NCBI GenBank assembly: GCA_029553475.1
Contig: JAKPKV010000078.1
Location: 1-64,000 of the forward strand
Direction: 5' to 3'
Length of the DNA stretch: 64,000 nt
Source of the DNA: Armatimonadota bacterium
Lineage (GTDB): Bacteria > Armatimonadota > Hebobacteria > CAIYQO01
Below, in pieces: positions 31,041 through 45,885 of this stretch; the stretch's first letter is position 1, and each line of letters starts with the position of its first letter. The notes under the pieces are model-generated. The model saw only the letters and a program-made list of their open reading frames with translations. It had not been told where the DNA came from and did no database searches. Both the position numbers and the translations under genes were made by a program.

Positions 31041-32678
31041 TTACCTGTCTTTGCCGAACAGTCGCTGGAACAATCCCCCCACCCCGCGCGGCTGCGGCAA
31101 GTCGCCGGCGGCGCGCTCGACTTCCAGTTGGAATGGTTCGGGGATTTCCGGCGCCTGTTTCACCAGGAGCTGCAGCGCGCGAAGCTCCTCCGGCGGACGC
31201 TGGGCGACGTGGGAGGTGAGGCGGTCAAGCAGGTCAGCCGCGCCATTGTCAACGAGCGCCTGCGCCAGCATGGCCAGATTCACGTATTCCATGCGCCGCG
31301 CGGCGAGCAGGCCGTCTACCAGCAAGCGACCTTTCCCCGGGAGGATGAGCCGCGCGAGATCCACGCCCGGCGCCACCAGCGCGCAGGTTAAAAAGGTGCG
31401 GAAATGATCGTCCGGCAGCCGCGTCAGCAGCGCCCGCGCCTCTTCCGGCGTGCCCGTCCAGTAGGTGTGCCAGATGCGCAGGCCGACGTGATCCGCTTTC
31501 GCCAGCAGCGCGCCCAGCGCCGCGAGCTCGCCGGCGGCGGGACGCGCGAAGCCTTGCGCGGCGTAGCGCTGATACAGCGCTTCCAACAGCGGCGGCAGTT
31601 CCAGCGGGTCGAGCAGCAGCGCCAGCACTTCGCCCGGTTCGCGCTGCTGCAGGGCCGGCAGTAATCGGTCGGCCAGCGCGCCGCCCACCGTCTGGGCCAG
31701 GCGGCGGCGCAACGCCGCGTGCACCTGCGTCGCGGAGGTAGAAAAGACGCTCCCCAACACGGGCGCGGCGATAGCCCGCAGCGTATCGGGTTCCGCCGGC
31801 TCGCCATCCAGCCAGCCGCAGAGCCGCCAGGCTTCGTCGCGCGCCCCCGCGACCACCCCCAGCGCCTGGTGATCGAGCGCGGCGGCGACCCAGCGCTCGT
31901 AACAGGAAGCGGGATCGGGCAGTTCGGGATCATCCACCGTGCGCGCCGCGCAGGAGACGGCCAGGTAATTCGGGTTGGCGGGCACGTCGGGCAGTCCCAC
32001 CGCCCAGCAGTAGGTGGCGACGGGATTGCACCGGTAAAAGTAGGTGTCGAAGGTGCAGGCCGATCGGTGCGCGGTGGGCACGGCCAGCATCGCCGCGCGC
32101 AGCACCGCCCGCGTCTCCTCCGGCGAGCCGATGATGGCCAGCATCTTCCGCGCGCCCGCCAGCCGCGCGGCATGCAGGCCGGCCATCACCAGCCGCCGCC
32201 GCGCCTCGCGGCTCCACTCAGCGAGCGGCGCCTCGCTCGCGCCCGCGTCAGGCAGCGTCAGCGTGAGCGGCGGGATGGCGCCGGTCGCCATGTCACCCCG
32301 CGCCAGCGCGTCGTCTACGGTCGTCAGGAATGGCGCATGCTCCAGGATGCGCAGCGGGTCGCCGCCGCAGCGGGCGAACGCCTCCGGCGGGAAAATCAGG
32401 CAGTGCGCGAGATAGCGGCCGCCGCGCCCCGCGCTGTCCGGCTCCGGCAGCGGCACCGCCTGCCCCACCACGGCATGCCCGGCCTGCGTCACGAAAAAGA
32501 GCTGTTTGATCGGCGCGGTCGCAGAGGGATAATAGAGGACCCGCGCCTCGATCTCCTCGACTTCCCGCTCCGACAGCCCCCCCGGGGTGACGAAGAGCGT
32601 CTGAAACCCCCCGCGCTTTTTCGGCGACTGCTCCTGCTCAACGTTGGCATAGATATGCTGATACGCCTGTAGCTCCAT
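31041..32678 (-). CDS. GAP1-like (GTPase-associated protein 1) protein
   Basis: 545 aa. The N-terminal third, 'MELQAYQHIYANVEQEQSPKKRGGFQTLFVTPGGLSEREVEEIEARVLYY' and 'GRGGRYLAHCLIFPPEAFARCGGDPLRILE', fits the GAP1-N2 domain as I remember it from TRAFAC-GTPase-associated multi-protein systems; the central part is helical with 'GARKMLAIIGSPEETRAVLRAAMLAVPTAHRSACTFDTYFYRCNP', and the C-terminus is a helical array. It lacks membrane segments. It is the last gene of the eleven-gene cluster, five bases after the first HEAT protein; start ATG preceded by GGAGTGAG. Proposed role: partner or effector-adaptor of the zinc-ribbon GTPase. The domain assignment is from memory and should be checked. Confidence 0.7.
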   Translation of the reverse strand: MELQAYQHIYANVEQEQSPKKRGGFQTLFVTPGGLSEREVEEIEARVLYYPSATAPIKQLFFVTQAGHAVVGQAVPLPEPDSAGRGGRYLAHCLIFPPEAFARCGGDPLRILEHAPFLTTVDDALARGDMATGAIPPLTLTLPDAGASEAPLAEWSREARRRLVMAGLHAARLAGARKMLAIIGSPEETRAVLRAAMLAVPTAHRSACTFDTYFYRCNPVATYCWAVGLPDVPANPNYLAVSCAARTVDDPELPDPASCYERWVAAALDHQALGVVAGARDEAWRLCGWLDGEPAEPDTLRAIAAPVLGSVFSTSATQVHAALRRRLAQTVGGALADRLLPALQQREPGEVLALLLDPLELPPLLEALYQRYAAQGFARPAAGELAALGALLAKADHVGLRIWHTYWTGTPEEARALLTRLPDDHFRTFLTCALVAPGVDLARLILPGKGRLLVDGLLAARRMEYVNLAMLAQALVDNGAADLLDRLTSHVAQRPPEELRALQLLVKQAPEIPEPFQLEVERAAGDLPQPRGVGGLFQRLFGKDR

Positions 32679-32683
32679 GATGC

Positions 32684-34426
32684 TCACTCCTCGCAAATCA
32701 CCCTGCCGAACATGCTGCGCAGCACGTTGATCGTACTCTCCGACAGCGCCGCGTGGTTCCATACCTGACAGAGCAGCCGGCGATATCGCCGCACGCGTTC
32801 AGCATCAAGATCGTTGCCGGCCCACATGCAGAAGCGTTCCACTTCATAATCGGTGGCGCGGAGAATCGCCACGGCGTCGAAATCGAACATCCCCTCGCGG
32901 GCGAGCGCATGCACGCGCGCGGTGGTTCCCTCCATCCGGTACGGCTCGCGCAGGGTGTTATCCAGCACCGCCACCACCAGATTCACCTCGCTGAGCGCGT
33001 GGGCGCTCTTGCCGCACTGGCGGCAGGCCAGATAGGGCGCCGTCCCCACCCCGTGCAGCACCGCCTGTTTCCAGATAAACCGTGACAGGCACGCGCCGCA
33101 GTAGAAGGCATGCGCGCGCGGCTCCAGCGTCTCCCGCAGCTCCAGCAGCGTCTGCACGGCCAGCGCGCGCAGCTCCGGACTGGCGCCATACAGCAGCGGC
33201 ACCAGCACATCCGTCACCTGTACCGCCCCCAGCAGGCACAGCGTCCGGCAGGCCGCCGCCCGCACCGGCAGGCATTCGTCCCCCGCGCAGGCCAGCAGGC
33301 CGGGTATGGCGCGCGGGTCGCCGAGCTGCCCCAGCGCCGTACAGGCCGCCGCCCGCACCGGCGCATCGGCATCGCCCAATCGCCCCAGCAGCCCGGATAC
33401 GGCGCGGCCATCCTTCAGCGTGCCGAGCACCTGGCAGGCCGCCAGCCGGGCCATCGTCTCCGGCGCCTCCAGGTACCGCAGCAGCGGCTCCAGGGCAATC
33501 GGCCCCAGCGCCGCCAGCGCCGCCCGCGCCGACTGCCGGGTGCGCCACTCCGCGTCGCCGAGCTTCGCCATCAGGGGCGGCACCGCGGCGGGATCGTTCA
33601 CCGCGCGGAGCACCTGCAGCACCAGGCGGCGCACCTCCGCCTCCGGCCGGCCCAGTTGCGCGATCACCGCCTCCAGGCAGGCGGGGCCGATGCGGCCCAG
33701 CGTGGCGCACGCGGCCACCCGCACGCGCGCCGATGAGTCATCCAGGTGCGAGGCGAGCACCGGGATGAGCCAGCCGGCGTCCGTGCGCGCCCGCTCCGCC
33801 AGCGCCTCCAGCGCCAGCGGATCACCCTGCAGGCTGCGCAGCACGGTGCGCCCCAGCGCGCCCTCCCCCACGCCCTCCAGCGCCGTGGCGGCCGCCTCGC
33901 GCACCCGCGCGTCATCGTCGCCGAGCAGCGCCAGCAGCGCCTCGCGCGCGCGCGGATCGCCCAGCGCGCCCAGCGCCCGGCAGGCGGCGATGCGCACCGC
34001 CGCGCGGGGGTGGCGCAATTGGTCGAGCAGGGCGGGCACCGCGTGCGGATCGCCCTGCCGCGCCAACCCGGCGCAGGCCGCCTGGCGCACCAGGATATTC
34101 TCGTCCGCCAGCCGCGCGAGCAGCGCCGCCAGCGCCCGCGCGTCCCGCACATACCCCAGCGCCTGGCAGGCTGACTGCCGCATCTCCGGCGACGCATGCG
34201 TCGCACGCGCCAGCAGCGGCTCCACCGCCGCCGCCCCCATGCGCCCCAGCGCCGCCCAGACCGCCTCACGCACGCGCGTATGCGCATCGAGCAGCAGGCC
34301 GAGCAGCGCCGGCAGTGCCGCCAGATCGGACGAGGCCCCCAGCCGCGCGCACGCCGCCGCCCGCACCTGCCAGTTCTCGCTCGTTATTGCCCCCAGGTCA
34401 TGCGAAATACTCATCTCGCGACTCAT
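32684..34426 (-). CDS. HEAT-repeat protein with C-terminal zinc-ribbon/ERFC module (first paralogue)
   Basis: About 580 aa. Roughly a dozen HEAT/PBS-lyase-like repeats (pattern 'ALGxLGDPRAxxxLLxxLGDxDAxVRxAAxxAL') fill residues 15-440. Then 'FYCGACLSRF...YLACRQCGKS' forms a C2..C2 zinc ribbon, and 'VVAVLD...FDFDAVAILRATDYEVERFCMWAGNDLDAERVRRYRRLL...LSESTINVLRSMFGRV' completes the C-terminal module shared with the proteins at 34587, 40834 and 42197. HEAT arrays usually bind other proteins; the module may be a shared sensor or docking platform. The start is uncertain (ATG at 34426 or 34414; an upstream frame to 34525 looks non-coding). Precedes the GAP1-like gene by five bases. Confidence 0.82.
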   Translation of the reverse strand: MSREMSISHDLGAITSENWQVRAAACARLGASSDLAALPALLGLLLDAHTRVREAVWAALGRMGAAAVEPLLARATHASPEMRQSACQALGYVRDARALAALLARLADENILVRQAACAGLARQGDPHAVPALLDQLRHPRAAVRIAACRALGALGDPRAREALLALLGDDDARVREAAATALEGVGEGALGRTVLRSLQGDPLALEALAERARTDAGWLIPVLASHLDDSSARVRVAACATLGRIGPACLEAVIAQLGRPEAEVRRLVLQVLRAVNDPAAVPPLMAKLGDAEWRTRQSARAALAALGPIALEPLLRYLEAPETMARLAACQVLGTLKDGRAVSGLLGRLGDADAPVRAAACTALGQLGDPRAIPGLLACAGDECLPVRAAACRTLCLLGAVQVTDVLVPLLYGASPELRALAVQTLLELRETLEPRAHAFYCGACLSRFIWKQAVLHGVGTAPYLACRQCGKSAHALSEVNLVVAVLDNTLREPYRMEGTTARVHALAREGMFDFDAVAILRATDYEVERFCMWAGNDLDAERVRRYRRLLCQVWNHAALSESTINVLRSMFGRVICEE

Positions 34427-34586
34427 GACCGCGATACCTGCGCTCGACTCCGCACCCGTGCGTTGGCCGTGCGCCACGCCGCACAGCGGCGTGTCCCCCA
34501 TGCTTTCGCGAAAAGGGATCGGCATGCGCCACCTTCGCCAGCCACCGGCGCGTCGGCAGTTCCGCGGTGATGCCCATCCGGAGTTT

Positions 34587-36149
34587 CTATTCGCCGCCCT
34601 CCGGCAACTTCCTCGCCACCCGCACCGTCCCGAAAATGTGCTCCAGCACCCGCAGCGCGTTCTCCGACAGCGCGCACGCCACCGTCACCGGGATGTCGCG
34701 GCGGCGCGGCGCGCGATACGGGTCCAGGTCGTTGCCGGCGCTCATGCAAAAGCGTTCGATGGTGTAGTCATCGGCGGCACGGATCTCCACGCGGTCGAAA
34801 TCGCAGAGCGTCTCGCGCCGCGGCCAGCAGACGCGGGCGATGCCGTTGTGCACCGATACCGCCTTCGTCTCCCGGCTGTCCAGCACCGCCACCACCTCAC
34901 GCACCTCCGGCGCGAACTGCAGGACCGCGCCGCAGCCGCGGCAGGTGAGCACCCGCGCCCGGCCCGCCAGCCAGGTGCGGTACTCGCGCGGCGTGGGCCG
35001 CAGCAGGCACGGTCGGCACAACATCCGCGGCGCCGCCGCCGCCTGCGCCGCCCAGACACATTGGAAAAGGCTGATGAGCGCGCGCTGCAGCGGGATATCG
35101 AAGCGCGTGGCGGCCAGCAACTCCAGCAGCGGCTTGGTCACCGCCTGCTCTCCCGCCAGCACCAGTGCCGCCAGCGCCGACGGATCACCCGCAAACATCG
35201 CGCGCGCCGCCTCCGCCAACTCCACCTGCCCCAAGCGTTCCAGCGCGTCCAGTGCCGCGCGGCGCACCACCGGCGCCGTATCTCCCACCCGCGCCGCCAC
35301 TTTCCTCACCTCGCGCGCGGCGCCCATCGCCCCCAGCGCCGTGCAGGCGGCCTCGCGCACGGTCGGCATGGGGTCATGCACGCACTTCGCCACCTGCGGC
35401 AGCGCCGCCGTTGTCCGCAGCGCCCCGAGCACCCGGCAGGCCGCCAGCCGCAGTCGCGCATCCTGCCGCGTGGTCCAGCGCAGCAGCACCGGCACCACCA
35501 GCGTCTGCGCCTCCTGCCCCAGCCGGAAGAGCGGTCCGGTATCGCCGGTGCGCAGCAGGTGATCCAGGGCATCGAGCAGCGCCCCCTGCCCCAGCGCGGT
35601 ATAGATCGCCATCCGCACCTCGTAAAATTTCCGCTCCAGCGGCAGGCGTTCCAGCAGTATGTCAACCGCCCGCGGATCGCGCAGGCGGCCCAGCGCGCGG
35701 CAGACGGTCGCGCGCATCCCCCGATCACCCTCCTGCAGCAGGCGCAGCAAGTGCTCGTATGCCCGGACATCGCCCAGCGCCGCCAGTGCCTCGCCGGCGG
35801 CCAGGCGCACGGGCAGCGACCGGTCAGTGCACAGCGCGAGCAGCGGCTCCACCGCCCGCGCGTCGCCCAGGCGGCCCAGCGCCCGCGCCGCCGCTTCCCG
35901 CACGCGCCGGTTGCCTTCACCCAGGCGCCCGACCAGGGGCTCCAGTGCTCGCGCGCCGCCCAGGATCACCAGCGCCGCGCACGCGTCCGCGCGCGTGATA
36001 TGGCTGCTGTGCTTCAGACAGGCCAGCAGCGGACCCCAGGCCCGCAGGTCGCCGGACGTCGCCAGCTGTGCGATCGCCCGCTGCCGCGTCCGGGACTGGC
36101 GGCTGTCCAACTGCCTGATCCATTGCTCCACCCGGCGCACCGGTGGCAT
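34587..36149 (-). CDS. HEAT-repeat protein with C-terminal zinc-ribbon/ERFC module (second paralogue)
   Basis: 520 aa. HEAT-like repeats occupy residues 10-345 ('GDLRAWGPLLACLKHSSHITRADACAALVILGG', 'GDARAVEPLLALCTDRSLPVRLAAGEALAAL'), then 'MLCRPCLLR...VLTCRGCGAVL' makes the zinc ribbon and '...LCDFDRVEIRAADDYTIERFCMSAGNDLDPYR...VTVACALSENALRVLEHIFGTVRV' the module. Its ERFC module is the most divergent at the RYRR position (PRRRD). The start at 36149 lies two bases after the stop of the FGE-like gene, with GGGGGTG before it; the longer upstream frame overlaps that gene and was rejected. Probably a scaffold in the same complex as its paralogue. Confidence 0.82.
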   Translation of the reverse strand: MPPVRRVEQWIRQLDSRQSRTRQRAIAQLATSGDLRAWGPLLACLKHSSHITRADACAALVILGGARALEPLVGRLGEGNRRVREAAARALGRLGDARAVEPLLALCTDRSLPVRLAAGEALAALGDVRAYEHLLRLLQEGDRGMRATVCRALGRLRDPRAVDILLERLPLERKFYEVRMAIYTALGQGALLDALDHLLRTGDTGPLFRLGQEAQTLVVPVLLRWTTRQDARLRLAACRVLGALRTTAALPQVAKCVHDPMPTVREAACTALGAMGAAREVRKVAARVGDTAPVVRRAALDALERLGQVELAEAARAMFAGDPSALAALVLAGEQAVTKPLLELLAATRFDIPLQRALISLFQCVWAAQAAAAPRMLCRPCLLRPTPREYRTWLAGRARVLTCRGCGAVLQFAPEVREVVAVLDSRETKAVSVHNGIARVCWPRRETLCDFDRVEIRAADDYTIERFCMSAGNDLDPYRAPRRRDIPVTVACALSENALRVLEHIFGTVRVARKLPEGGE

Positions 36150-36151
36150 GT

Positions 36152-36772
36152 TCACCCCCGCTTCACCGCGCGGAATCCAAAAAACGGCAGGCGCTCGGCG
36201 GCGCGCATCGGCGTCACCGGCGGACAGGAGAGCGGCTCGCAGATGACCTCGTAGCACGCGGGGCGCGGTTTGCCGTAGCCGGCCCAGCGCGCGCCGTCGC
36301 GCACCCATTCCAGCACGCCCCCCTCCATCAGCGCCAGTTGATGCAGCGGGGCGGGGTTGAGCAGGCGCCGCAGCGTGCCGACCAACTCCCGCGCGGCAGG
36401 CGCGGCCTGCGCCAGCGCGCGATCCAGCTCCGCCTGCCAGGTGTAGCAGGACGAGAGCGCGCAATATCCCCGTCGCCACTCGTCCGCGGTGGGCAGATCG
36501 AAACCCGGCCCCAGCCAGCGCGCGAAGTGCACCGCCTCGTCGGGCAGGATGCCGGTGAGCAGCAGGCGCTCGCGGTCGGCATCCCCCGCCGCGCGATAGG
36601 AGGCGCGCGGATTCACCGCCAGCACGGCGCTGTACCAATCGTCGCCGACCGCGCCCGGCTCGGCCAGGTAGCGCTCAAACTGCACCTTCGAAACCGGCAG
36701 CAGGTGCAGGCGCAGCGCTGTGCCGGGGATCTGCACCAGCGGAAAGCCGGTCCGGTCACAGGAGAACAACAT
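36152..36772 (-). CDS. FGE-sulfatase-fold (formylglycine-generating enzyme-like) domain protein
   Basis: 206 aa. 'LLPVSKVQFERYL', 'LTGILPDEAVHFARWLGPGFDLPTADEWRRGY' and the terminal 'FFGFRAVKR' are the FGE-type order (V.....YP..v.f..wl..rLPTe.EWe....GfR). The family includes true formylglycine synthases and many non-enzymatic relatives in signalling and conflict systems. Several Cys lie in 'PACYEVICEPLSCPP', but I cannot tell whether they form a catalytic pair. It overlaps the end of the vWA gene by 17 bases and is followed two bases later by the HEAT protein. Role in this complex unknown; ligand-binding (as in C-type lectin folds) is a guess. Confidence 0.72.
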   Translation of the reverse strand: MLFSCDRTGFPLVQIPGTALRLHLLPVSKVQFERYLAEPGAVGDDWYSAVLAVNPRASYRAAGDADRERLLLTGILPDEAVHFARWLGPGFDLPTADEWRRGYCALSSCYTWQAELDRALAQAAPAARELVGTLRRLLNPAPLHQLALMEGGVLEWVRDGARWAGYGKPRPACYEVICEPLSCPPVTPMRAAERLPFFGFRAVKRG

Positions 36773-37862
36773 AGCAGCCGCCTCCTTCCACCGGGTGATA
36801 GGGCTGCAGCGGCCCGGCGGCCGCCCAGCGCGCCGCCGCCGGCTGATACGCGTACACGGTGCCGCGCTGCCCCTCGCGTACCACCACGCGGCCGGGCTCG
36901 AGCGGCAAGACGTCGGAGGCGGTCACGCGGAAACGTACCGCATCCTGCCCGGGCTGCAACAGCGCGAATTGCCCGGGCTGCGCCCGCAGCGAGGGATACA
37001 CCGGCGTGCCCAGCAGCGCCGTCCCTTCCGTGCAGGTGAGGACGTCCCAGCGGTGCCGACCACCGCAGGAGGGACAGGAAAAGTCTTCATGGCGCAGCGC
37101 CGCCTGGAAGATCGCCCTCTCCGCTCCGGTCAGGGAACCCTGCCAGGCAAGGCGCTCCGTCGGCGCCGGCTCCGGCTCCAGGGCGATGGCACGCGTCTGG
37201 CCGCTCACCAGCGTGGCCGCCGCCCGCACCGTGCCGCCGGGCGCCGCCAGGAAGCGCAGCGTCGTGCCGAACTCCTCCAGACGCTCGCCGGTGAGCAGGA
37301 AGGCGTCGGCGAGCCGGGCCAGGCGATATCCGGCATTACCCCACCCCAACGGCATGAAGCCGTCGCCGCCGATGCGCACTGCCGCCACCGGATCATGCAC
37401 GCGCTGGAACAGCTCGTTCGGCGACGGATGCGCGACCTCCATGGCATACATCGCTTCGCCCTGCAGCGAGGCGCCCATCGCCACCAGCGTGGTGCGCGCC
37501 AGCAGCGGGGTGTCCGCCCAGTCTTCCAGATCAAAGATCGGTCCGGCGCCGATGATCACGATCGGCGTGTCCGGCTGCGTGTCCAGCGCCGCCGCCACCG
37601 GCGCCAAGATGCTGCCGCGCCCGCGGTTCTCGCGGAACCAGCCGGCGGCCTTCAGCGGGAAATCGCCCGGCGAATACGGCGCGGCGCCGCCCAGAAAATA
37701 CAGGCTGCACGCCACCCGCGCCGGCAGCGCGGTGAGGAGCCCCGTCACCAGCGTCGAAATCGCCGCCTGCGCCGCCTCCGCGCTCTCCGAGGCGTCCAGC
37801 ACCAGCGCCAGGCTGCCGCCCGACGCCAGGCTCAACGTAGCGCTGTACGCTCCGACGTTCAT
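36756..37862 (-). CDS. vWA (MIDAS) domain protein with zinc ribbon
   Basis: 368 aa. The N-terminal vWA domain begins 'SGGSLALVLDASES' with the MIDAS motif DxSxS at Asp23-Ser27 and ends around residue 190. A middle region follows, then 'FSCPSCGGRHRWDVLTC', a single zinc ribbon, and a beta-rich tail ('VRFRVTASDVLPLEPGRVVVREGQRGTVYAY'). vWA proteins are commonly paired with AAA+ ATPases as here. The start ATG shares its A with the stop TGA of the ATPase gene (TGATG), so translation is coupled; a GTG three bases upstream is the alternative start. Together with the AAA+ protein it recalls chaperone-like MoxR/vWA pairings. Confidence 0.8.
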   Translation of the reverse strand: MNVGAYSATLSLASGGSLALVLDASESAEAAQAAISTLVTGLLTALPARVACSLYFLGGAAPYSPGDFPLKAAGWFRENRGRGSILAPVAAALDTQPDTPIVIIGAGPIFDLEDWADTPLLARTTLVAMGASLQGEAMYAMEVAHPSPNELFQRVHDPVAAVRIGGDGFMPLGWGNAGYRLARLADAFLLTGERLEEFGTTLRFLAAPGGTVRAAATLVSGQTRAIALEPEPAPTERLAWQGSLTGAERAIFQAALRHEDFSCPSCGGRHRWDVLTCTEGTALLGTPVYPSLRAQPGQFALLQPGQDAVRFRVTASDVLPLEPGRVVVREGQRGTVYAYQPAAARWAAAGPLQPYHPVEGGGCYVVLL

Positions 37863-39706
37863 CACACCGACGCCCCTTCCCGCACCACCGGTCCGCGCTG
37901 CGGGTCCACGCCCACGGTGAGCTGCACGCGCTCGCGCCCGGAATATTCCACCCGCAACACGGCGCGCGCCAGCGGCAGCATCACCTGCCGTTCCAGCGCG
38001 TTGGAGATGCCGCGCCCGCCGAACTCCGCCATCTTCTCGCCGAAATGCGCCACCAGCCAGGCAATCACCGCGTCATCGAAGGTGAGGCGATGCCCCAGCG
38101 CCCGGTACTTGTCCGCAAAGGTGGCGGTGATCTCGCGCAGGCGCGCGCGGACGATGGCATGCTGCACGTCCGGCAGGTCAATGAAATTGAACGGCACGAT
38201 ATTGCTGCCGATGCGGTTGAGCAGCTCTGGGCGGGAGATCTCCTGGGTGAAGAAGCGCTCCACCGCGGCGATGAAGTGCGCGCCGACCTTCACCCGCCGC
38301 TCATCGGGGGTGAGGCCGCGGTCGGCGCGGATGGCGTCCAGCGCCCGCCGTTCCTCCACCGGATTGCCGCGGCTGTCGGTGGTGCGCGTGCCCAGGTTGG
38401 AGGTGAAGATGATGACCGTCTCCGAGAAGAAGACGGTCTGCCCGCGCCCGTCGGTGAGGCGGCCGTCATCGAGGATCTGCAGGAAGATATCCATGATCTT
38501 CGGGTGCGCCTTCTCCACCTCGTCGAAGAGCACGATGGAGAAGGGGCGCTCGCGCACGGCGTTGGTGAGCATGCCCCCGCGCTCGTAGCCCACGTACCCC
38601 GGCGGCGAGCCGATGAGGCGGGAGACGGTGTGCTCCTCCTTCAGCTCGCTCATGTCGAAGCGGAGGAAGGCTTCTTCCGTGCTGAAGAGGAATTTCGCCA
38701 GCTTCTTCGCCACCAGCGTCTTCCCCACCCCGGTGGGACCGGCGAAATAGAGCACCCCCTTCGGTTTGGAGGCGGTGCCGCTCGCCAGCCCGGTCAGGCC
38801 GGCGCGCGCCAGCGTGAGCATCTCCAGCACGCGCAGAATCGGCTCGTCCTGCCCCTTCACGCCCTCCGTCTCCGTGAACCAGCCCGGCGCGCCGTTCAAC
38901 TGCTCGATGCTGAGGTCCGACCAGTAATCCTGCTGCTCGCCGATGCGGTATTTGTTCACGAGCATGCGCACGTCGCGCTCGCCGATGTCCGCGGCGCCGC
39001 GGATGTCTTCGATGATGTTATCGAGGTCGCGCAGGTAGAGGCCGTCGGTGAGGTTGGCGATGAGCTCGATGTGCGCGAACCCGTCGCCCAGCCGGTGGCG
39101 TAAATACGCTTCGCGGTCCGCCTTATCCGGCGAGGGGATGGCCAGCACGTGCGTCTTCGGCGAGTTGGTGTAGAGCTCGATGGGGATGAGCGTGTCCTGC
39201 AGCGCCACCATCACCAGCCGGTTGTTGGGGGTGATATTCTCCACCACCTTCTCCAGCCACAGCAGCGTCTTCATCTCCTCGTCGGCGTAGGTGCTTTTGT
39301 ACGGCGTCAGCTTGTCGAGGTAATACAGGGTCACGAACAGGTTCTGCTGGGTGGCGCTGAGATCGCGCGCCCAGGCGGCCAGCGTGGTGAGCACGTCCGG
39401 GCGCTTCGTCACCTTCGGCGCCGCCGCCCCGCCCAACTCCGCATCTGCCGGCGCATCGGCGCGCCGCTCCGGTGCCCCTTTCGCCTGCGCCTCCCGCCGC
39501 TCCATCCCCACGGCGTCGTAAAAGACCAGCTCGCCGAACACCAGCCCCCGCTCGCGCAGCGCCCGCGCCTGCGCCCGCAAGAGCTCCGTCAGGTTGTCAT
39601 ACACCACCCCGTTCTCATCAATATACTTATCCCGCACGTTGCCGTGCAGAATGATGACCGGGCGGTCTTCCAAACTCCCGCGCAGGTTTTTAATCCAGAC
39701 GGACAT
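37862..39706 (-). CDS. ClpB-like AAA+ ATPase with degenerate N-terminal AAA-like region
   Basis: 614 aa. Residues 290-590 are a Clp/Hsp100 AAA+ module: Walker A GPTGVGKT (323-330), 'SPPGYVGYERGGML', Walker B LFDEVEKAHP (Asp395-Glu396), 'FTSNLGT' sensor-1, 'PELLNRIG' and 'GGRGISNALERQ' (sensor-2/ClpB_D2-small). Residues 1-260 have the outline of another AAA domain ('RPVIILHGNVRDKYID', 'VENITPNNRLVMVALQDTLIPIELYT') without a P-loop, so only the second domain binds ATP productively. It probably remodels the vWA or GTPase partners. Start after GAGGTAACGGTG; preceded by a 189-base gap with three small GC hairpins; followed directly by the vWA gene. Confidence 0.88.
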   Translation of the reverse strand: MSVWIKNLRGSLEDRPVIILHGNVRDKYIDENGVVYDNLTELLRAQARALRERGLVFGELVFYDAVGMERREAQAKGAPERRADAPADAELGGAAAPKVTKRPDVLTTLAAWARDLSATQQNLFVTLYYLDKLTPYKSTYADEEMKTLLWLEKVVENITPNNRLVMVALQDTLIPIELYTNSPKTHVLAIPSPDKADREAYLRHRLGDGFAHIELIANLTDGLYLRDLDNIIEDIRGAADIGERDVRMLVNKYRIGEQQDYWSDLSIEQLNGAPGWFTETEGVKGQDEPILRVLEMLTLARAGLTGLASGTASKPKGVLYFAGPTGVGKTLVAKKLAKFLFSTEEAFLRFDMSELKEEHTVSRLIGSPPGYVGYERGGMLTNAVRERPFSIVLFDEVEKAHPKIMDIFLQILDDGRLTDGRGQTVFFSETVIIFTSNLGTRTTDSRGNPVEERRALDAIRADRGLTPDERRVKVGAHFIAAVERFFTQEISRPELLNRIGSNIVPFNFIDLPDVQHAIVRARLREITATFADKYRALGHRLTFDDAVIAWLVAHFGEKMAEFGGRGISNALERQVMLPLARAVLRVEYSGRERVQLTVGVDPQRGPVVREGASV

Positions 39707-39895
39707 CACCGTTACCTCATGTTTCTCGCATTTCAACCTGTTCGTTGGTAGTGCGCCACGCAGCAACGCGGAGTGGCGCTATGCCGGCTGCCGCCCCTTC
39801 GGGGCTCATGAGTCATATAACCCTACCTCCCACGGGTTCCGCTCCGCTTCACCCGTGGCTAGCGTCACACGGCCCTTCGGGCCTTCTTCACCTCT
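39707..39895. other. Gap with three GC hairpins inside the system operon
   Basis: Holds CCACGGG/CCCGTGG (with a 14-base loop), a GGCCC-TTC-GGGCC hairpin and GCCCC-TTC-GGGGC, all without T-tracts, and TTCACCTCTTCACC near the upstream stop. It may separate two transcription or processing units of the cluster, between the coiled-coil and ATPase genes. Confidence 0.4.
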
Positions 39896-40837
39896 TCACC
39901 GTTCCATCTGCCGCTGCACCCCCGTCGGTTCGTCCTTCTCCCCGCGCGCCTTCAGCACCGGCAGCGGCTCGCCATTCTCCAGATGAAATGCCGTTTCGAT
40001 GCCGAATTCTTCATCGAGGAACTGCGAAATCTGCTGGAAATCCTGCGGGCATTCGCGATCGGTGAGCCCGGAGTCGGTGCGGATGCCGTCCAGCGCCACG
40101 GTGAAGGCGATCTGGCCGCGGGCGATGGTATCCACCGTCAGCAGGATGTCGCTGCCGCGGTCGCCCTCGCGGGCGTAGCGCGGCGGAGCGGTCTCTTCAA
40201 AGCCCATCTCCGCGCACACCTGGCGCAGCGCTTTCAGCAGGTACAGGCGGTGCTGCTGCTGCGCCTCGCGGGCATCGGCGGCGGCGGTCTTCTCGGTGAG
40301 CTCCGCGCGCAGCGCCTTCAGCAGCGCCTCCAACTCCCCGTAGCGCTCCGTCTCCAGTAGCGCGCGGCCCTGCTTCAGCGCGTCGCGCCAGGCTTTCAGC
40401 TGCCCCTCGCCGTACCAGAGCGTCAGCACCTGCTGGCCAGCCAGCACCTGCCCCTCGGCGGCCGTCAACTCCGTCGCCAACCGCTGCCCCAGGGCATCCG
40501 CTTTCCGGGTGAGCGCCAGCAGCAGCCCTTCGCAGGCCCGCCGCCCGGCTTCCGCGTGTTTCGTCCAGCCGTCCAGCCCGGACAGAATGTCGGCGCGGTC
40601 GGCGTTGACGTTCAGATGCCCGCTCTCCGGCTCCGGCAGGCGCAGCCACGCTTCCACCCGCGCCACTTCAGCGGCAAACGTCGCCTTTAACCCGCCCGAC
40701 GCCCCTTCCAGCGCTTCCTGCACCCGCCCGCGCAGCGCCTCGCTCTCCGCCTGCAGCGCGTTGATGCGCTTGATGCGCTCCAGTTTCTCCGCCCGCTCGC
40801 GCTGGATGCGGTAATCGGTCGTCTTCACCCCGCTCAT
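39896..40837 (-). CDS. Coiled-coil protein of unknown function
   Basis: 313 aa. The first 215 residues are highly charged helical heptads ('RIQRERAEKLERIKRINALQAESEALRGRVQEALEGAS', 'YGELEALLKALRAELTEKTAAADAREAQQQHRLYLLKALRQVCAEMGFEE'), then a small alpha/beta domain ('LTVDTIARGQIAFTVALDGIRTDSG...DFQQISQFLDEEFGIETAFHLENG'). The ATG overlaps the stop of the upstream membrane protein (ATGA), so it is coupled. It looks like a structural linker between the membrane proteins and the ATPase part. I do not recognise the family. Confidence 0.75.
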   Translation of the reverse strand: MSGVKTTDYRIQRERAEKLERIKRINALQAESEALRGRVQEALEGASGGLKATFAAEVARVEAWLRLPEPESGHLNVNADRADILSGLDGWTKHAEAGRRACEGLLLALTRKADALGQRLATELTAAEGQVLAGQQVLTLWYGEGQLKAWRDALKQGRALLETERYGELEALLKALRAELTEKTAAADAREAQQQHRLYLLKALRQVCAEMGFEETAPPRYAREGDRGSDILLTVDTIARGQIAFTVALDGIRTDSGLTDRECPQDFQQISQFLDEEFGIETAFHLENGEPLPVLKARGEKDEPTGVQRQMER

Positions 40838-42207
40838 GCCGTCACTCCTTCCGCCGGCCCGATCGCCACCCGGCCAAACCGGCTCCGCAGAATCCTCAGT
40901 GTATTCTCCGACAAATCGCACGCCGCCGCAACCGTCACCGCCATGCGCCGGTATCGTGATATACGCCTGGCATCGGTATCGTTGCCAACCATGATGCAAA
41001 AACGCTCCACGTCGTAATCCGTGGCGTGGACGATCTCCACGCGGTCACAGTCGAAAAGGCGATTCCAAACCAACCAGTTCACGCGTATCTCTCCCTCCGC
41101 ATCCGCCAGGCGCTCGCTCATACGCGCGTCAATCACCGCCACGACCGGCCGGTAGTCGCGAAACGTCTCGCTCTGCCCGCAGCAGCGGCAGCCGTAATAC
41201 GTCACCGGGCGGCGCCGCGCGACGCGCACGCGATGGGGGGCGGGGTGGCACAGGCATGCGGGACAGAGCACGTCCTCCGTCCGTCCAGCCAGCCGCTCCG
41301 CCGTCTCGCGCCCGATGCAGCGCATGAGCCAGCGCGCCAGCCGGGCGTATTTCCCCGTCGCCGCGGCCCCGGCCAGCGGCTCCATTATCGCCCCACCCCG
41401 CCGCGTCAGATACTGTACGGCGTAGAAACGCTTCTCCCAGCTCCCGCCGAGCAGATCATCCCGCAGCACCTGCTCCAGCGCGGGAGGGATCTGCAGATAG
41501 ATCATCAGGCGCTTTTCCAGCAGCTCCGGCCACGGGCCGGCGGCGTCCGCCGACGCGGCGCACCGCTCGCGCAGCGCGCCTTCCAACATCAGCGGGTCCG
41601 GGCGCCTGGCCCACCAGATGATGGCGCGGTCAACCAGCATCTCCCCCCGGTGCTGCGTGCCGCCCACCCAGCCAAGATAGCCCAGCATGATCAACTGGAG
41701 CAGGACGGCAAAGGCCGTCGCCTGCTGGGGGTCATACCCCATCCGGTGAACCGGCAGCAGCCGGATGAGCAGGACTACACCCCACATGAGGATGCTCGCG
41801 ATGAGCACCGGCCACCACGCCCGCCAGAGATGGCCGAAGCCGCTGCGCATCCAACTCGCCAGCGTAGCCCGGCGGAAGGGGATTGTGCGCCAGACAATGT
41901 AGACCGTGGCGCCGAGAATCCAGAGCGGCAGCACCACGGTAAACACCGGGCCGGCCAGCTCGATCTCCACGCCGGCGCCGGCCACGGCGCTGAAAACCAT
42001 GCCGAGCACGCCGAGGAGCAGCAGCAACAGCAGCATGCCGGTCGCCCCGGCCCCCACCCCGGCCATGATACTCAATCCGAGCGCCGTCACCACCATCCGC
42101 CGCCCGGGATGCATCGCCTGGATGAACGGGAACAGCCGCCGCGCCAGCTCCTCATCCTCGCAGTGCGCCCACTCGCCCAGGATCACCTCCCGCGGATCAG
42201 GCGCCAT
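40834..42207 (-). CDS. Four-helix membrane protein with C-terminal zinc-ribbon/ERFC module
   Basis: 457 aa. Hydrophobic segments at about residues 30-70, 75-100, 118-137 and 155-180 ('LGLSIMAGVGAGATGMLLLLLLLGVLGM', 'PVFTVVLPLWILGATVYIVW', 'WWPVLIASILMWGVVLLIRLL', 'AFAVLLQLIMLGYLGWVGG'). A soluble helical region follows, then 'DVLCPACLC...YYGCRCCGQS', the zinc ribbon, and '...LFDCDRVEIVHATDYDVERFCIMVGNDTDARRISRYRRMAVTVAAACDLSENTLRILRSRFGRV'. The start is taken after GGGGGTGCGAG (11-base overlap with the upstream gene); an upstream ATG at 42225 is the alternative. The module is cytosolic by the positive-inside rule. It is a paralogue of the next gene upstream. Confidence 0.83.
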   Translation of the reverse strand: MAPDPREVILGEWAHCEDEELARRLFPFIQAMHPGRRMVVTALGLSIMAGVGAGATGMLLLLLLLGVLGMVFSAVAGAGVEIELAGPVFTVVLPLWILGATVYIVWRTIPFRRATLASWMRSGFGHLWRAWWPVLIASILMWGVVLLIRLLPVHRMGYDPQQATAFAVLLQLIMLGYLGWVGGTQHRGEMLVDRAIIWWARRPDPLMLEGALRERCAASADAAGPWPELLEKRLMIYLQIPPALEQVLRDDLLGGSWEKRFYAVQYLTRRGGAIMEPLAGAAATGKYARLARWLMRCIGRETAERLAGRTEDVLCPACLCHPAPHRVRVARRRPVTYYGCRCCGQSETFRDYRPVVAVIDARMSERLADAEGEIRVNWLVWNRLFDCDRVEIVHATDYDVERFCIMVGNDTDARRISRYRRMAVTVAAACDLSENTLRILRSRFGRVAIGPAEGVTA

Positions 42208-43759
42208 CTCGCACCCCCCGCCCATCCGCCACGCTCACCTGCCCAAAGATGCTTTTTAGCACCCGCAGCGCGTTCTCTTCCAGCGGGCAGGCGACGAGCA
42301 CGGGGATGCGTTTCCGGCGGTCGGCGCGGAATTCGTCGAGATCGTTGCCCAGCAGCATACAGAAGCGCTCGGTCTCGAATTCGCTGGCGTGGGCGATGAC
42401 GATGCGGTCGTAATCAATCGGCGCGCTATCGCGCAGCCAGTTGACGAGGAGGGCGCCGGGCGTCCGCTGGCGCGCCTCCGGCATCAGCGCGTCGAGCACC
42501 AGCACCACCTCGCCCTCCAGGAAATCGCGGCTTTGCCCGCAGGCGCGGCAGGCGTAGTAGCGGTAGCCGGCCGCCTGCCGCGCGACGCATTTCGTCCGGC
42601 AGGTGGGGCAGAGCAGCCGCGCGGCGTCGCGCCCCAGCCGCCGCCGGGTATCCTCGCTGATGGCCGCCAGCAGCCGGCGGATTTCCCGCCGCTGCGCGCG
42701 GTCGCGCAACCGCTGCGCCAGCGGCTCCATCGCCGGCCCGCCCAGGTGGATGAGGAGTTGCCGGCCTTCAAAGCGCTCTGACCAGAGCGGGTGTCCGAGG
42801 GCGGAGAGCAGCGGCGGCACGGTGAGCGGCGTCGCTTTGCGCGCCTCCAACTCCTCCATGATTTTCCCCCACGCCTCCTTCGCCCGCGGGTGCGCGCGCG
42901 CCGCCTCGCGCAGCGCCGCTTCGACCTCCGGCGGTTTTGGCCGCGGCCACCACCACCACCAGAGCCAGCGCCGGTCATACACGCGGCCGCGATAACTGCC
43001 GGCCATCAACGCGTGCAGCCAGACGGCGCACTCGATGCCCAACAGCACGACGGCGGCATACGGGTACAGCGCGCGCTCGCCCCACTTGAGGTACAGCGGC
43101 GCGGCGCCGGCCATCCCGCACAGCAGCGCGAACATCGCCCAGGAGAGGCGCTTTTTCCGGATGGCGGTCACGATATCGCCGACGAGGAAGGCCACCAGCG
43201 CCAGCGCGGCCAGCGCGAGCAATCCGTACCGGGTCGGCATCGTTTTCGCGGGATCGTTGAGCCAGCTCGTCAGCATCATGCCCACCACCGCCACCCCCGC
43301 GCCGACGGGGAAGCAGAGCAGCGCCAGATGAAAGGCCGTGGTGACGATGAACCAGAGGAAGCGAAAGAAATCGGCGAACAGCCGCACGTGCGTCAATGGC
43401 CAGGCCAGCAGGCTGTTCAGCCACCAGGCTGCCGTGAAACGGCGCCAGGCCAGCAGGCGCGTCAGCAGCAGCAGCGCCGCTCCGGCCAGCGCGCCCTGCT
43501 CCATCAGGCTGAACAGCGTGGCCTGATGGAACTGCCACAGCCACGGCATGCGCCAGGCGGGGGCGTTGAGGTAGATGAGCCAGCTCAGCGCGGCCAGCAG
43601 CGCTCCCAGCACCGCGCCGATGGGCAGCAGCGTCAGCGTGGCGAGCACTCCCGCCGGCTCGGCGCCGAGCACGCGGAACAGCCGCCCGGCGAATTCCGCA
43701 TCGCCGGTCGCCCGCCATTCCCGCCACAGTACCCGTCGCCAGCTCACCGCCCCTCCCAT
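42197..43759 (-). CDS. Multi-pass membrane protein with C-terminal zinc-ribbon/ERFC module
   Basis: 520 aa with about six to seven membrane helices between residues 35 and 245 ('VLATLTLLPIGAVLGALLAALSWLIYL', 'ALAGAALLLLTRLLAW', 'FIVTTAFHLALLCFPVGAGVAVVGMMLTSWL', 'YGLLALAALALVAFLVGDIV', 'LSWAMFALLCGMAGAAPLYL', 'YAAVVLLGIECAVWLHALMAG'). The end repeats the module: 'RLLCPTCRTKC...YYACRACGQS', 'IDYDRIVIAHASEFETERFCMLLGNDLDEFRADRRKRIPVLVACPLEENALRVLKSIFGQV'. It overlaps the next gene. The start shown is an ATG; a GTG 15 bases inside (after GGGAGGGG) is possible. It may anchor the system in the membrane. Confidence 0.83.
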   Translation of the reverse strand: MGGAVSWRRVLWREWRATGDAEFAGRLFRVLGAEPAGVLATLTLLPIGAVLGALLAALSWLIYLNAPAWRMPWLWQFHQATLFSLMEQGALAGAALLLLTRLLAWRRFTAAWWLNSLLAWPLTHVRLFADFFRFLWFIVTTAFHLALLCFPVGAGVAVVGMMLTSWLNDPAKTMPTRYGLLALAALALVAFLVGDIVTAIRKKRLSWAMFALLCGMAGAAPLYLKWGERALYPYAAVVLLGIECAVWLHALMAGSYRGRVYDRRWLWWWWWPRPKPPEVEAALREAARAHPRAKEAWGKIMEELEARKATPLTVPPLLSALGHPLWSERFEGRQLLIHLGGPAMEPLAQRLRDRAQRREIRRLLAAISEDTRRRLGRDAARLLCPTCRTKCVARQAAGYRYYACRACGQSRDFLEGEVVLVLDALMPEARQRTPGALLVNWLRDSAPIDYDRIVIAHASEFETERFCMLLGNDLDEFRADRRKRIPVLVACPLEENALRVLKSIFGQVSVADGRGVRDGA

Positions 43760-43808: not shown

Positions 43809-43954
43809 CTGGAGGGCGAGACTCCGTCGAGCCGCGCGCGTCAGCACCACTGCCGCCTCTCTTCATACGTTGGTGTGTAGCACCCGCTCAAAGGTATATC
43901 GAAATGTGATTACCGGCCCTTACGCGCGCGGCTCGACGGCGTCTCGCCCTCCAG
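43809..43954. repeat. Inverted-repeat element (family C), 146 bp
   Basis: Arms 43809-43841 and 43922-43954 (start CTGGAGGGCGAGAC) are inverted repeats with one mismatch in 33. No clear target duplication and no open frame inside. A 20-base fragment (19 identical) is at 45971-45990, so there were several copies. It lies within the 528-base gap of the multi-protein system. Confidence 0.75.
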
Positions 43955-44012
43955 AACATGCGGCGCTTCGTGTCTCCGCAAAAACGAATGCCTTTCGCTC
44001 ATACGCACCTCA

Positions 44013-44102
44013 ATAAATGGTGGCAGGTACGAATAATTCCGCCGTTCCACGCACGTATCACGTGATCCACCCGCAATTATTCGTGCCTGTTACCATTTAT
44101 TC
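44013..44102. repeat. AT-rich inverted-repeat element (family D), 90 bp
   Basis: Arms 44013-44039 (AATAAATGGTGGCAGGTACG...) and 44076-44102 match as inverted repeats at 24 of 27. The interior contains ATCACGTGAT, a short palindrome. It adjoins, and apparently interrupts, the left part of the family B copy at 44103. It differs in composition from its GC-rich neighbours, suggesting an independent origin. Confidence 0.75.
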
Positions 44103-44287: not shown

Positions 44288-45280
44288 CTACCCTCCCCAC
44301 CCCTGCATCCATCGCTTCACCCCCCGCCAGGGATCGGGCAACGACGACTCGATGGTCCAGAGCACGGGATCGAGCACGCGGCGGGGCATCACCTGCACCG
44401 TCAGGTCTCTTCCCTGCGGGCGGGCGCCCAGCGAGGACACCATGGAGAAGGAGACGCCGCGGAAGTAGGCGCGGGTGGCGTTGAGAAACTCGTCCGCTTC
44501 CAGCTCGTGCCGGGTGAAGGCGCGCAGGCGGTCGGAGACGAGCGCCATCTGCTCGTAGTATTTCAACGGCTGCGCCAGCCGCGCGATGGAGCCATCGCCC
44601 AGATACCCGGCGATGTCCGTCCACTTGCGCAGGCGCTCGCCCATCTGGTCCGCCTTGGTGTAGACCACGCTCAGATGCTGCGCCCGCGTCTCCGCGCCCA
44701 GCTCCGCCATGCCCACGATATAGGTGTTCAGCAGCTTGTGCAGGTCGCGCGAGGGGTCCGGCATATCGGGGATGCTCAGCAGCAGCATCGCCGTCCTCGC
44801 CCGCCGCACGAAGCGCGCGTCGCGCACCAGCTTTGTCGGCTGCTCAAAACTCTCACCGCTGGTGTCGTAGAAGACCAGCGTGCAGTTCGGCTGGTGGGGA
44901 ATGCCTTCCACCCGCACCAGCGTAGGCCGGGGGAAATTCGCCGGGGTGGCGTCCGGCAGGTGGCCGCCCTCCAGCATGCCCACGTTCTCGTAGACCGTCC
45001 GCAGGCTCTCCTCGTCCAGCCCTATGGTGAAGAAGCGCTGCCAGTGCCGCGCCATGCGCATCTTCTTCAGCAGATGGAAGAGGGAGGCGAAGTAGACCGT
45101 TTTCCCGTGCTGGCGAAAGCCCACCGCGCTCATCACCACCGGCGGGTATTGCCGGTATTCCTTGACGTAGAGCGCCGGCACCGGCTGGTTACAGGCCGGG
45201 CAGAGGAACACGCTGACGCCGCGCACGGTTTCCTGCTTGAACGTCACTTCGGTCAGGCACATGGGGCAGAGTATGGTCAT
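44288..45280 (-). CDS. Zinc-ribbon GTPase of the double-GTPase/TRAFAC-like type
   Basis: 330 aa. Cys5/Cys8 and Cys27/Cys30 form an N-terminal zinc ribbon. The P-loop is GFRQHGKT (54-61); 'YDTSGE' at 138-143 gives the DxxG switch II and 'YTKADQ' at 207-212 matches NKxD/TKAD base recognition. This is the Double-GTPase-2 style found beside GAP1 proteins, as I recall it. It probably acts as the molecular switch of the system. Its ATG overlaps the stop of the radical SAM gene (ATGA). The gap to the following gene in the operon, 528 bases, is filled with repeats. Confidence 0.85.
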   Translation of the reverse strand: MTILCPMCLTEVTFKQETVRGVSVFLCPACNQPVPALYVKEYRQYPPVVMSAVGFRQHGKTVYFASLFHLLKKMRMARHWQRFFTIGLDEESLRTVYENVGMLEGGHLPDATPANFPRPTLVRVEGIPHQPNCTLVFYDTSGESFEQPTKLVRDARFVRRARTAMLLLSIPDMPDPSRDLHKLLNTYIVGMAELGAETRAQHLSVVYTKADQMGERLRKWTDIAGYLGDGSIARLAQPLKYYEQMALVSDRLRAFTRHELEADEFLNATRAYFRGVSFSMVSSLGARPQGRDLTVQVMPRRVLDPVLWTIESSLPDPWRGVKRWMQGWGG

Positions 45281-45885
45281 GCTTGCAGCAGCTCCTTCAG
45301 GCGTTCCAGAAACCCCGGCGGCCAGATGCCAGTGGCGGAAAGATACGCCTCATCCACCGCGAGCTCGACCTCCGCGGGCGCCTCATCAATCGTCGCGGAG
45401 AGCGCCTGGTAGCGTGGGGTGAGAAAATGCACGCGTTGATTGCGGCTGCCGCGCCAGCGCAGCGCCGCCGCCTGCTCCGCCAGATACGGCCCGTCAATGA
45501 GAATATCCGTGAGGCGCAACAAGCGGTCAATGTCGGGGTCGTGTCGCGTCCGCAGCGCTTCCAGCGTATGTCCGGAGAAGCAGAGCACGGAGAGGCCGCC
45601 TTCGCGCAGGCGCTCGCTCAACTCGGCCAGCGCCCCCGCCTGCCGCGTCGGCTCGCCACCGGAGTAACTGACGCCCTCGATGCCGGAGGTGTCCAGCACC
45701 ATCGCGGCCACGGCGTTCACGGGCAGCACCGTGCGCGCGTCCAGCGGCTGGAATTCCGGATTGAAGCACCCGGGGCATCGCACGTCGCACCCCTGCAGCC
45801 ACAGCACGAAACGCGTCCCCGGCCCATTGGCCGTGGACCGCGCGCGCCACAGGCCGATATTCAACTCGCGGGAAGCCGCGGTCAT
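45277..45885 (-). CDS. Radical SAM protein, NrdG-like
   Basis: 202 aa, the short form of the superfamily. The 4Fe-4S site is C33-x3-C37-x2-C40 in QGCDVRCPGC, followed by 'SYSGGEP' and 'LIDGPY', as in anaerobic ribonucleotide reductase activators (NrdG). There is no class III reductase (nrdD) in the window, and the gene is coupled to the GTPase, so it probably modifies or activates a component of the system. It is the first gene of the cluster; the 138-base gap upstream carries a fragment of element C. Confidence 0.85.
   Translation of the reverse strand: MTAASRELNIGLWRARSTANGPGTRFVLWLQGCDVRCPGCFNPEFQPLDARTVLPVNAVAAMVLDTSGIEGVSYSGGEPTRQAGALAELSERLREGGLSVLCFSGHTLEALRTRHDPDIDRLLRLTDILIDGPYLAEQAAALRWRGSRNQRVHFLTPRYQALSATIDEAPAEVELAVDEAYLSATGIWPPGFLERLKELLQA

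What the first reader, a model, noticed from the sequence alone, without database searches (positions are those of the whole stretch)
32684..43759. One C-terminal module shared by four proteins of the cluster
The two HEAT proteins (32684, 34587) and two membrane proteins (40834, 42197) end in the same approximately 130-residue block: CxxC...CxxCG zinc ribbon, VVAVLD, FDxDxVxI, xATDYxVERFC, GNDxD, RYRR-like and LSExxLxVLxSxFGxV. Fusion of this block to a cytosolic scaffold and to a membrane domain suggests an oligomerising or ligand-sensing docking domain that links the membrane and soluble arms. I do not know a name for it.
Basis: seen in the sequence. Interest (0 to 1): 0.85.

Follow-up and report, generated by a model that had tools for sequence, protein, structure and literature searches.

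The report
Shared adaptor-like domain in GTPase conflict operon
Four proteins of one bacterial operon, two soluble scaffolds and two membrane proteins, end in the same undescribed zinc-ribbon plus alpha/beta domain, and the operon is a new layout of a known GTPase-based class of predicted bacterial self-defence systems, so the domain is probably the connector that holds its membrane and soluble parts together.

Summary
The four C-termini are homologous (pairwise BLASTP E 1e-16 to 1e-38). The block matches nothing in Pfam, NCBIfam or PADLOC and no solved structure. AlphaFold2 models it confidently (pLDDT 92): a zinc ribbon followed by an alpha/beta domain, with no significant fold match.

First, the shared unit is larger: the membrane proteins also carry a degenerate HEAT repeat just before the ribbon (hhalign E 5e-9). 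Second, the operon encodes a DO-GTPase2 and a GAP1-N2 protein, the core pair of the GAP1-N2-type "GTPase-centric" conflict systems predicted by Kaur et al. 2020 (PMC7159879). It lacks their FNIII component and adds a ClpB-like AAA protein, an FGE-like protein and the module proteins.

Of 291 Armatimonadota genomes, 5 have the module. Four of these are among the 7 with GAP1-N2 (Fisher p 6e-7); the fifth has it near contig ends, one copy beside the FGE-like gene. The GTPase's own N-terminal ribbon is the module ribbon's best match outside the family.

Best reading: a lineage-specific adaptor that assembles scaffold and membrane arms around the GTPase. It works like an effector-associated domain, but is not one by definition (no copy on GAP1). 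Function is inferred, not shown.

The parts
32684..34525 (-). Protein A: HEAT-repeat array with C-terminal zinc ribbon + alpha/beta module
   Evidence: Pfam HEAT_2 2.9e-64; homology of C-terminus
32693..33115 (-). Module of protein A
   Evidence: profile match
34587..36149 (-). Protein B: HEAT-repeat array with C-terminal module (start corrected from 36638)
   Evidence: Pfam HEAT_2 2.5e-37; start
34599..35033 (-). Module of protein B
40834..42225 (-). Protein C: membrane helices, degenerate HEAT unit, ribbon + module
   Evidence: hydropathy, AF2 of the full protein, HEAT-like segment
40837..41280 (-). Module of protein C (modelled, pLDDT 92)
42197..43759 (-). Protein D: membrane helices, degenerate HEAT unit, ribbon + module
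42209..42625 (-). Module of protein D
31041..32678 (-). GAP1-N2 protein (GTPase-associated protein 1), last gene of the operon
   Evidence: Pfam PF20013 4.4e-9, above its cut-off
44288..45280 (-). DO-GTPase2 with N-terminal zinc ribbon; GFRQHGKT, DTSGE and TKAD motifs present
   Evidence: Pfam PF19993 1.1e-6, above its cut-off; sequence
45277..45885 (-). NrdG-like single-cluster radical SAM protein, first gene of the operon
   Evidence: Pfam Fer4_12 4.3e-30
39896..40837 (-). Coiled-coil-like protein, no family
37862..39706 (-). ClpB-D2-like AAA+ ATPase
   Evidence: Pfam AAA_2 1.1e-51
36756..37862 (-). Protein with a zinc-ribbon-like CxxC segment; N-terminus faintly vWA-like, unconfirmed
   Evidence: no Pfam or PDB match
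36152..36772 (-). FGE-sulfatase (formylglycine-generating-enzyme-like) protein
   Evidence: Pfam PF03781 4.1e-7

Best explanation
The shared block is a lineage-specific adaptor: a zinc ribbon plus a small alpha/beta domain, always preceded by a HEAT or HEAT-like unit where the N-terminal part is readable. It belongs to an Armatimonadota variant of the GAP1-N2-type DO-GTPase conflict system. Proposed mechanism (inferred): the two membrane proteins and the two HEAT scaffolds dock to each other through their modules, and/or to the ribbon-bearing DO-GTPase, forming a membrane-anchored platform. GAP1 and the AAA protein set the activation threshold. Sensing by the HEAT or membrane arms would switch the GTPase, and the platform would then change the membrane or recruit an effector. 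Shown: homology, structure confidence, operon context, co-occurrence with GAP1-N2, and constraint. Inferred: docking, membrane anchoring as the purpose, and the role in conflict.
For: Four homologous copies in one operon. The operon holds DO-GTPase2 and GAP1-N2, both above Pfam cut-offs; that pair defines the Kaur et al. class. The module occurs in 5 of 291 Armatimonadota genomes and GAP1-N2 in 7, with 4 shared, Fisher p 6e-7; by genus p 1e-4. A module gene lies next to GAP1-N2 in all four shared genomes. The fifth genome has one copy beside an FGE orthologue, 41% identical, near a contig end, and a second copy at another contig end. The DO-GTPase N-terminal ribbon is the best match outside the family: hhalign E 5e-5, probability 66%, whereas the best of the control ribbons and ferredoxins reached E 1.8e-3, probability 15%. 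All four slots are orthologous between the two same-genus genomes, so they are old and distinct. dN/dS of the modules is 0.17-0.28. The domain is confidently folded.
Against: No physical interaction is shown and no multimer could be modelled. GAP1 itself lacks the module (E 0.48), whereas published adaptor domains sit on a core component. The GTPase match covers only the 37-residue ribbon and could reflect general ribbon similarity. The many strongly conserved charged residues (D51, DxD 77-79, NDxD 100-103, R106, R109) suit a ligand or metal site as well as an interface. Some module copies stand far from any system gene (G000 C3, G023 C131).
Confidence: 0.5

Rival explanations
1. The module is a ligand- or metal-binding sensor domain. 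The conserved DxD and NDxD acidic residues and the two arginines form a pocket for a nucleotide, a metal or a second messenger, and binding changes the HEAT and membrane arms. The copies do not need to touch each other.
For: Much of the strongest conservation among 18 sequences is in polar residues: D51, D77, D79, N100, D101, R106, R109. The predicted alpha/beta fold is of a type that often binds ligands.
Against: There is no match to any known ligand-binding family or fold. The same residues may be a structural salt-bridge network. No coordinates were available to test whether they cluster.
Confidence: 0.25
2. The module is only the C-terminal cap of a HEAT solenoid. It recurs because all four proteins descend from one HEAT-ribbon-cap protein, and it has no interaction role of its own.
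For: Every copy with a readable N-terminal part is preceded by HEAT repeats or a degenerate HEAT unit (hhalign E 4.8e-9; score 45 against at most 13 in 100 column-shuffled controls).
Against: Only one or two degenerate HEAT units remain in the membrane proteins, yet the module is kept whole. In A and C the module is more conserved than the rest of the protein (84% against 75%, 77% against 71%); D shows the reverse. A similar zinc ribbon is on the GTPase, which has no HEAT repeats.
Confidence: 0.15
3. The module is a degenerate GTPase-like domain that pairs with the DO-GTPase, taking the place of the second GTPase seen in many of these systems.
For: Many of the top Foldseek PDB hits are Rab, Arf or Sar small GTPases, probability up to 0.72. 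The genome holds a single DO-GTPase2.
Against: None of the fold matches is significant (best GTPase E 0.06, TM-score about 0.36). There is no P-loop, and the profile comparison with the DO-GTPase aligns only the ribbon.
Confidence: 0.05

Closest known systems
GAP1-N2-type GTPase-centric conflict systems (Kaur et al. 2020, PMC7159879)
   Same: DO-GTPase2 with an N-terminal zinc ribbon, a GAP1-N2 protein, membrane-containing components, and an FGE/FGS-like protein (reported there for planctomycetes)
   Different: No fibronectin III component and no tubulin, HSP70/GrpE or kinase theme. Instead a ClpB-like AAA protein, a coiled-coil-like protein, an NrdG-like radical SAM protein, and HEAT and membrane proteins with a shared C-terminal module
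Effector-associated domains, EAD1-EAD10 (same paper)
   Same: Small domain of no known enzyme family, present in several copies in one operon and elsewhere in the genome, fused to different partners; EADs are proposed to act by homotypic coupling
   Different: No copy on GAP1; larger, with a zinc ribbon; copies in adjacent genes are old slot-specific paralogues, not each other's closest relatives
Zinc ribbon of DO-GTPases
   Same: Two CxxC pairs about 17-20 residues apart, with LCPxCL at the first; hhalign E 5e-5
   Different: Only the ribbon is shared; the alpha/beta domain is absent from the GTPase

Membership tests
GAP1-N2-type GTPase-centric system | DO-GTPase of the TRAFAC clade, usually with N-terminal zinc ribbon(s) | tested here: met
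   PF19993 at 28.9 bits, cut-off 27; one N-terminal ribbon (two CxxC pairs), GFRQHGKT, DTSGE and TKAD motifs
GAP1-N2-type GTPase-centric system | GAP1 protein with a GAP1-N2 domain encoded near the GTPase | tested here: met
   PF20013 at 36.9 bits, cut-off 24; same operon
GAP1-N2-type GTPase-centric system | GAP1-M and GAP1-C domains | tested here: inconclusive
   No Pfam match to GAP1-M or GAP1-C at E 0.1. GAP1-M is found in a canonical Armatimonadota system, G271, so here they may be divergent or absent
GAP1-N2-type GTPase-centric system | FNIII-repeat component (described as characteristic of the class) | tested here: not met
   No fn3 match in any of the ten operon proteins scanned, whereas G271 has one. 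Filed therefore as a variant that holds the core pair, not as a typical member
Effector-associated domain (EAD) | One copy fused to a core component such as GAP1 | tested here: not met
   Module profile against GAP1 profile: hhalign E 0.48, probability 0.1%
Effector-associated domain (EAD) | Further copies in adjacent genes and elsewhere in the genome | tested here: met
   Four in the operon; one open copy on contig C3, one truncated on C56, remnants on C33 and C40
[quoted passage not shown]
   A, B, C and D each pair with their orthologue in G001 (support 99-100); deeper branches unresolved
Effector-associated domain (EAD) | Small, non-enzymatic domain | tested here: inconclusive
   No enzyme family or fold matched, but conserved charged residues do not exclude activity
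Any named domain family | Significant profile match | tested here: not met
   Pfam, NCBIfam, PADLOC and PDB sequence and fold searches

The most novel reading that the evidence does not exclude
A previously undescribed alpha/beta domain with a zinc ribbon is the common connector of a new layout of GTPase-centric conflict system. It joins two membrane proteins, two or three HEAT scaffolds and a ribbon-bearing GTPase into one membrane-anchored platform with a ClpB-like remodelling ATPase.
Probability: 0.4. Interest if true: 0.7.

Novelty: new variant of a known kind. Interest (0 to 1): 0.55.

Why it matters
The class of systems this operon belongs to is predicted from genome comparison, and how its many parts come together is open. 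One domain repeated at the ends of membrane and scaffold proteins gives a direct, testable answer for one lineage. It extends the GAP1-N2 class with a ClpB-like AAA, FGE-like and HEAT layout in Armatimonadota, and gives profile searches a new domain to recognise further members.

Tried and rejected
HAD phosphatase: FDFD and VGNDxD look like HAD motifs, but the predicted strand follows DFD instead of preceding it, and no HAD hit stood out in the fold search.

GTPase-like fold: only non-significant Foldseek hits.

GAP1 or the 36756 protein carrying the module: not supported.

Copies on plasmids, phages or viral contigs: none found.

Absence elsewhere is therefore not established.

Full-length AlphaFold2 of protein C was poor (pLDDT 64), except for the C-terminal domain, which has the same elements.

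Single-sequence HEAT search of C and D was negative; the profile comparison was positive.

Full report
What was checked. The finding claims that four minus-strand proteins (32684-34525, 34587-36149, 40834-42225, 42197-43759; A, B, C and D) share a C-terminal block. They do. Pairwise BLASTP over the stretches that include the block gives E from 3e-16 to 1e-37, and Smith-Waterman z-scores are 31-45 against shuffles. Thirty-two columns are invariant. Protein B starts at about 36149, not 36638.

Is it a known domain? No match to the block was found in Pfam, NCBIfam or PADLOC. Scanning all 18 relatives against Pfam gave only sub-threshold matches, several of them zinc-ribbon models. A profile search of the PDB gave nothing significant. 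AlphaFold2 on the 18-row alignment gave a confident model (pLDDT 92, pTM 0.85): a zinc ribbon, then strand-strand-strand-helix-strand-helix-helix-strand-helix-strand. Foldseek found nothing at E 0.001 or better in the PDB or in viral models. Many of the top PDB hits were small GTPases at E 0.06 or worse and TM-score about 0.35.

The shared unit is larger than described. The segment before the ribbon in the membrane proteins aligns with the HEAT-repeat profile built from the HEAT proteins: hhalign probability 96%, E 4.8e-9, score 45 against at most 13 in 100 column-shuffled controls. The repeated unit is therefore HEAT + ribbon + alpha/beta domain, and the membrane proteins are this unit plus an N-terminal set of membrane helices (hydropathy; helical model).

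The operon. On the minus strand from 45885 to 31041 lie an NrdG-like radical SAM protein, a DO-GTPase2 with N-terminal ribbon, D, C, a coiled-coil-like protein, a ClpB-D2-like AAA protein, a protein with a CxxC segment and a faintly vWA-like start, an FGE-like protein, B, A and GAP1-N2. Kaur et al. 2020 (PMC7159879) define GTPase-centric conflict systems by the DO-GTPase and GAP1 pair. The window operon has both above Pfam cut-offs. It lacks the FNIII component of that class, and it has none of the class's three published themes (tubulin, HSP70, kinase). A genome of the same phylum (G271, locus L074) carries the typical HSP70/GrpE/fn3 version and has no module hit, so both layouts exist in Armatimonadota.

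Distribution. With E at most 1e-4 the module is in 5 of 291 Armatimonadota genomes; the 18-row profile adds only one weak hit with stops, in G072. GAP1-N2 is in 7 of 291. Four genomes hold both: Fisher p 6e-7, or 1e-4 counted by genus. In all four a module gene is next to GAP1-N2. In the fifth, G080, one module copy precedes an FGE-like gene 41% identical to the window's near a contig end, and a second copy lies at another contig end. G022 keeps most of the gene order in a lower-GC genome, with several frames broken; G023 has a reduced version: GTPase, module protein, FGE, HEAT-module, GAP1. Solitary copies occur in the own genome on C3 (open), C56 (truncated), C33 and C40 (remnants), and in G023. 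Searches of plasmids, phages and viral contigs were negative. The cross-phylum search was weak, so restriction to Armatimonadota is not established.

Evolution. A, B, C and D each pair with their orthologue in the sister genome with support of 99-100, while deeper branches are unresolved. All four modules are under purifying selection (dN/dS 0.17-0.28); the GTPase (0.08) and AAA protein (0.05) are tighter. The four slots are therefore old, distinct and kept.

Link to the GTPase. The module profile aligns with the N-terminal ribbon of the DO-GTPases at E 5e-5, probability 66%. Other proteins with two CxxC pairs in the fetched loci reached at most probability 15%. This is suggestive, not proof of common descent, since ribbons are short.

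Mechanism. The most likely reading is an adaptor: modules on two membrane proteins and two scaffolds bind each other or the ribbon-bearing GTPase, and so build a membrane-anchored platform in which GAP1 and the AAA protein govern activation. The repeated module, the context and the constraint are shown. Binding, platform and conflict role are inferred. A ligand-sensing domain is the main rival because many of the best conserved residues are charged. A plain HEAT cap is the second.

Membership. The operon meets the two core features of the GAP1-N2 class, fails the FNIII feature, and is filed as a variant. The module works like an effector-associated domain but fails two defining features: no copy on GAP1, and adjacent copies not closest to each other.

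Noticed in passing
window 43809-43954 and 44012-44101: Two inverted repeats (36-nt and 30-nt arms) resembling small mobile or REP-like elements sit between the DO-GTPase and protein D; in the sister genome G001 the same gap is only about 50 bp.
   Followed up: partly
L029 11481-12608; L030 10128-10742; L031 12309-12425; L040 10245-10328: Dispersed copies of the HEAT-module protein in the own genome, one open and the others truncated or remnants, suggesting repeated duplication and decay.
   Followed up: partly
L074 1553-12713: A canonical HSP70-vWA/GrpE/HSP70/fn3/DO-GTPase/GAP1-N2 system in another Armatimonadota genome (G271), without the module.
   Followed up: partly
window 36756-37862: N-terminus (LALVLDASESAE) looks like a vWA domain with a degenerate metal site, next to the AAA gene; no Pfam or PDB match supports it.
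   Followed up: partly
window 37862-39706: The AAA protein has a ClpB-D2-like ATPase with Walker A (GPTGVGKT) after an N-terminal half of ~300 residues without a Pfam match; by eye that half could be an inactive first AAA domain.
   Followed up: no
L039 6103-8220: The sister genome G001 carries a third, larger HEAT-module protein (705 aa) between the orthologues of A and B, absent from the window operon.
   Followed up: partly
L032 3658-12276: In G022 the syntenic system is broken by frameshifts or stops in several genes at 49% GC; decay or assembly error.
   Followed up: no
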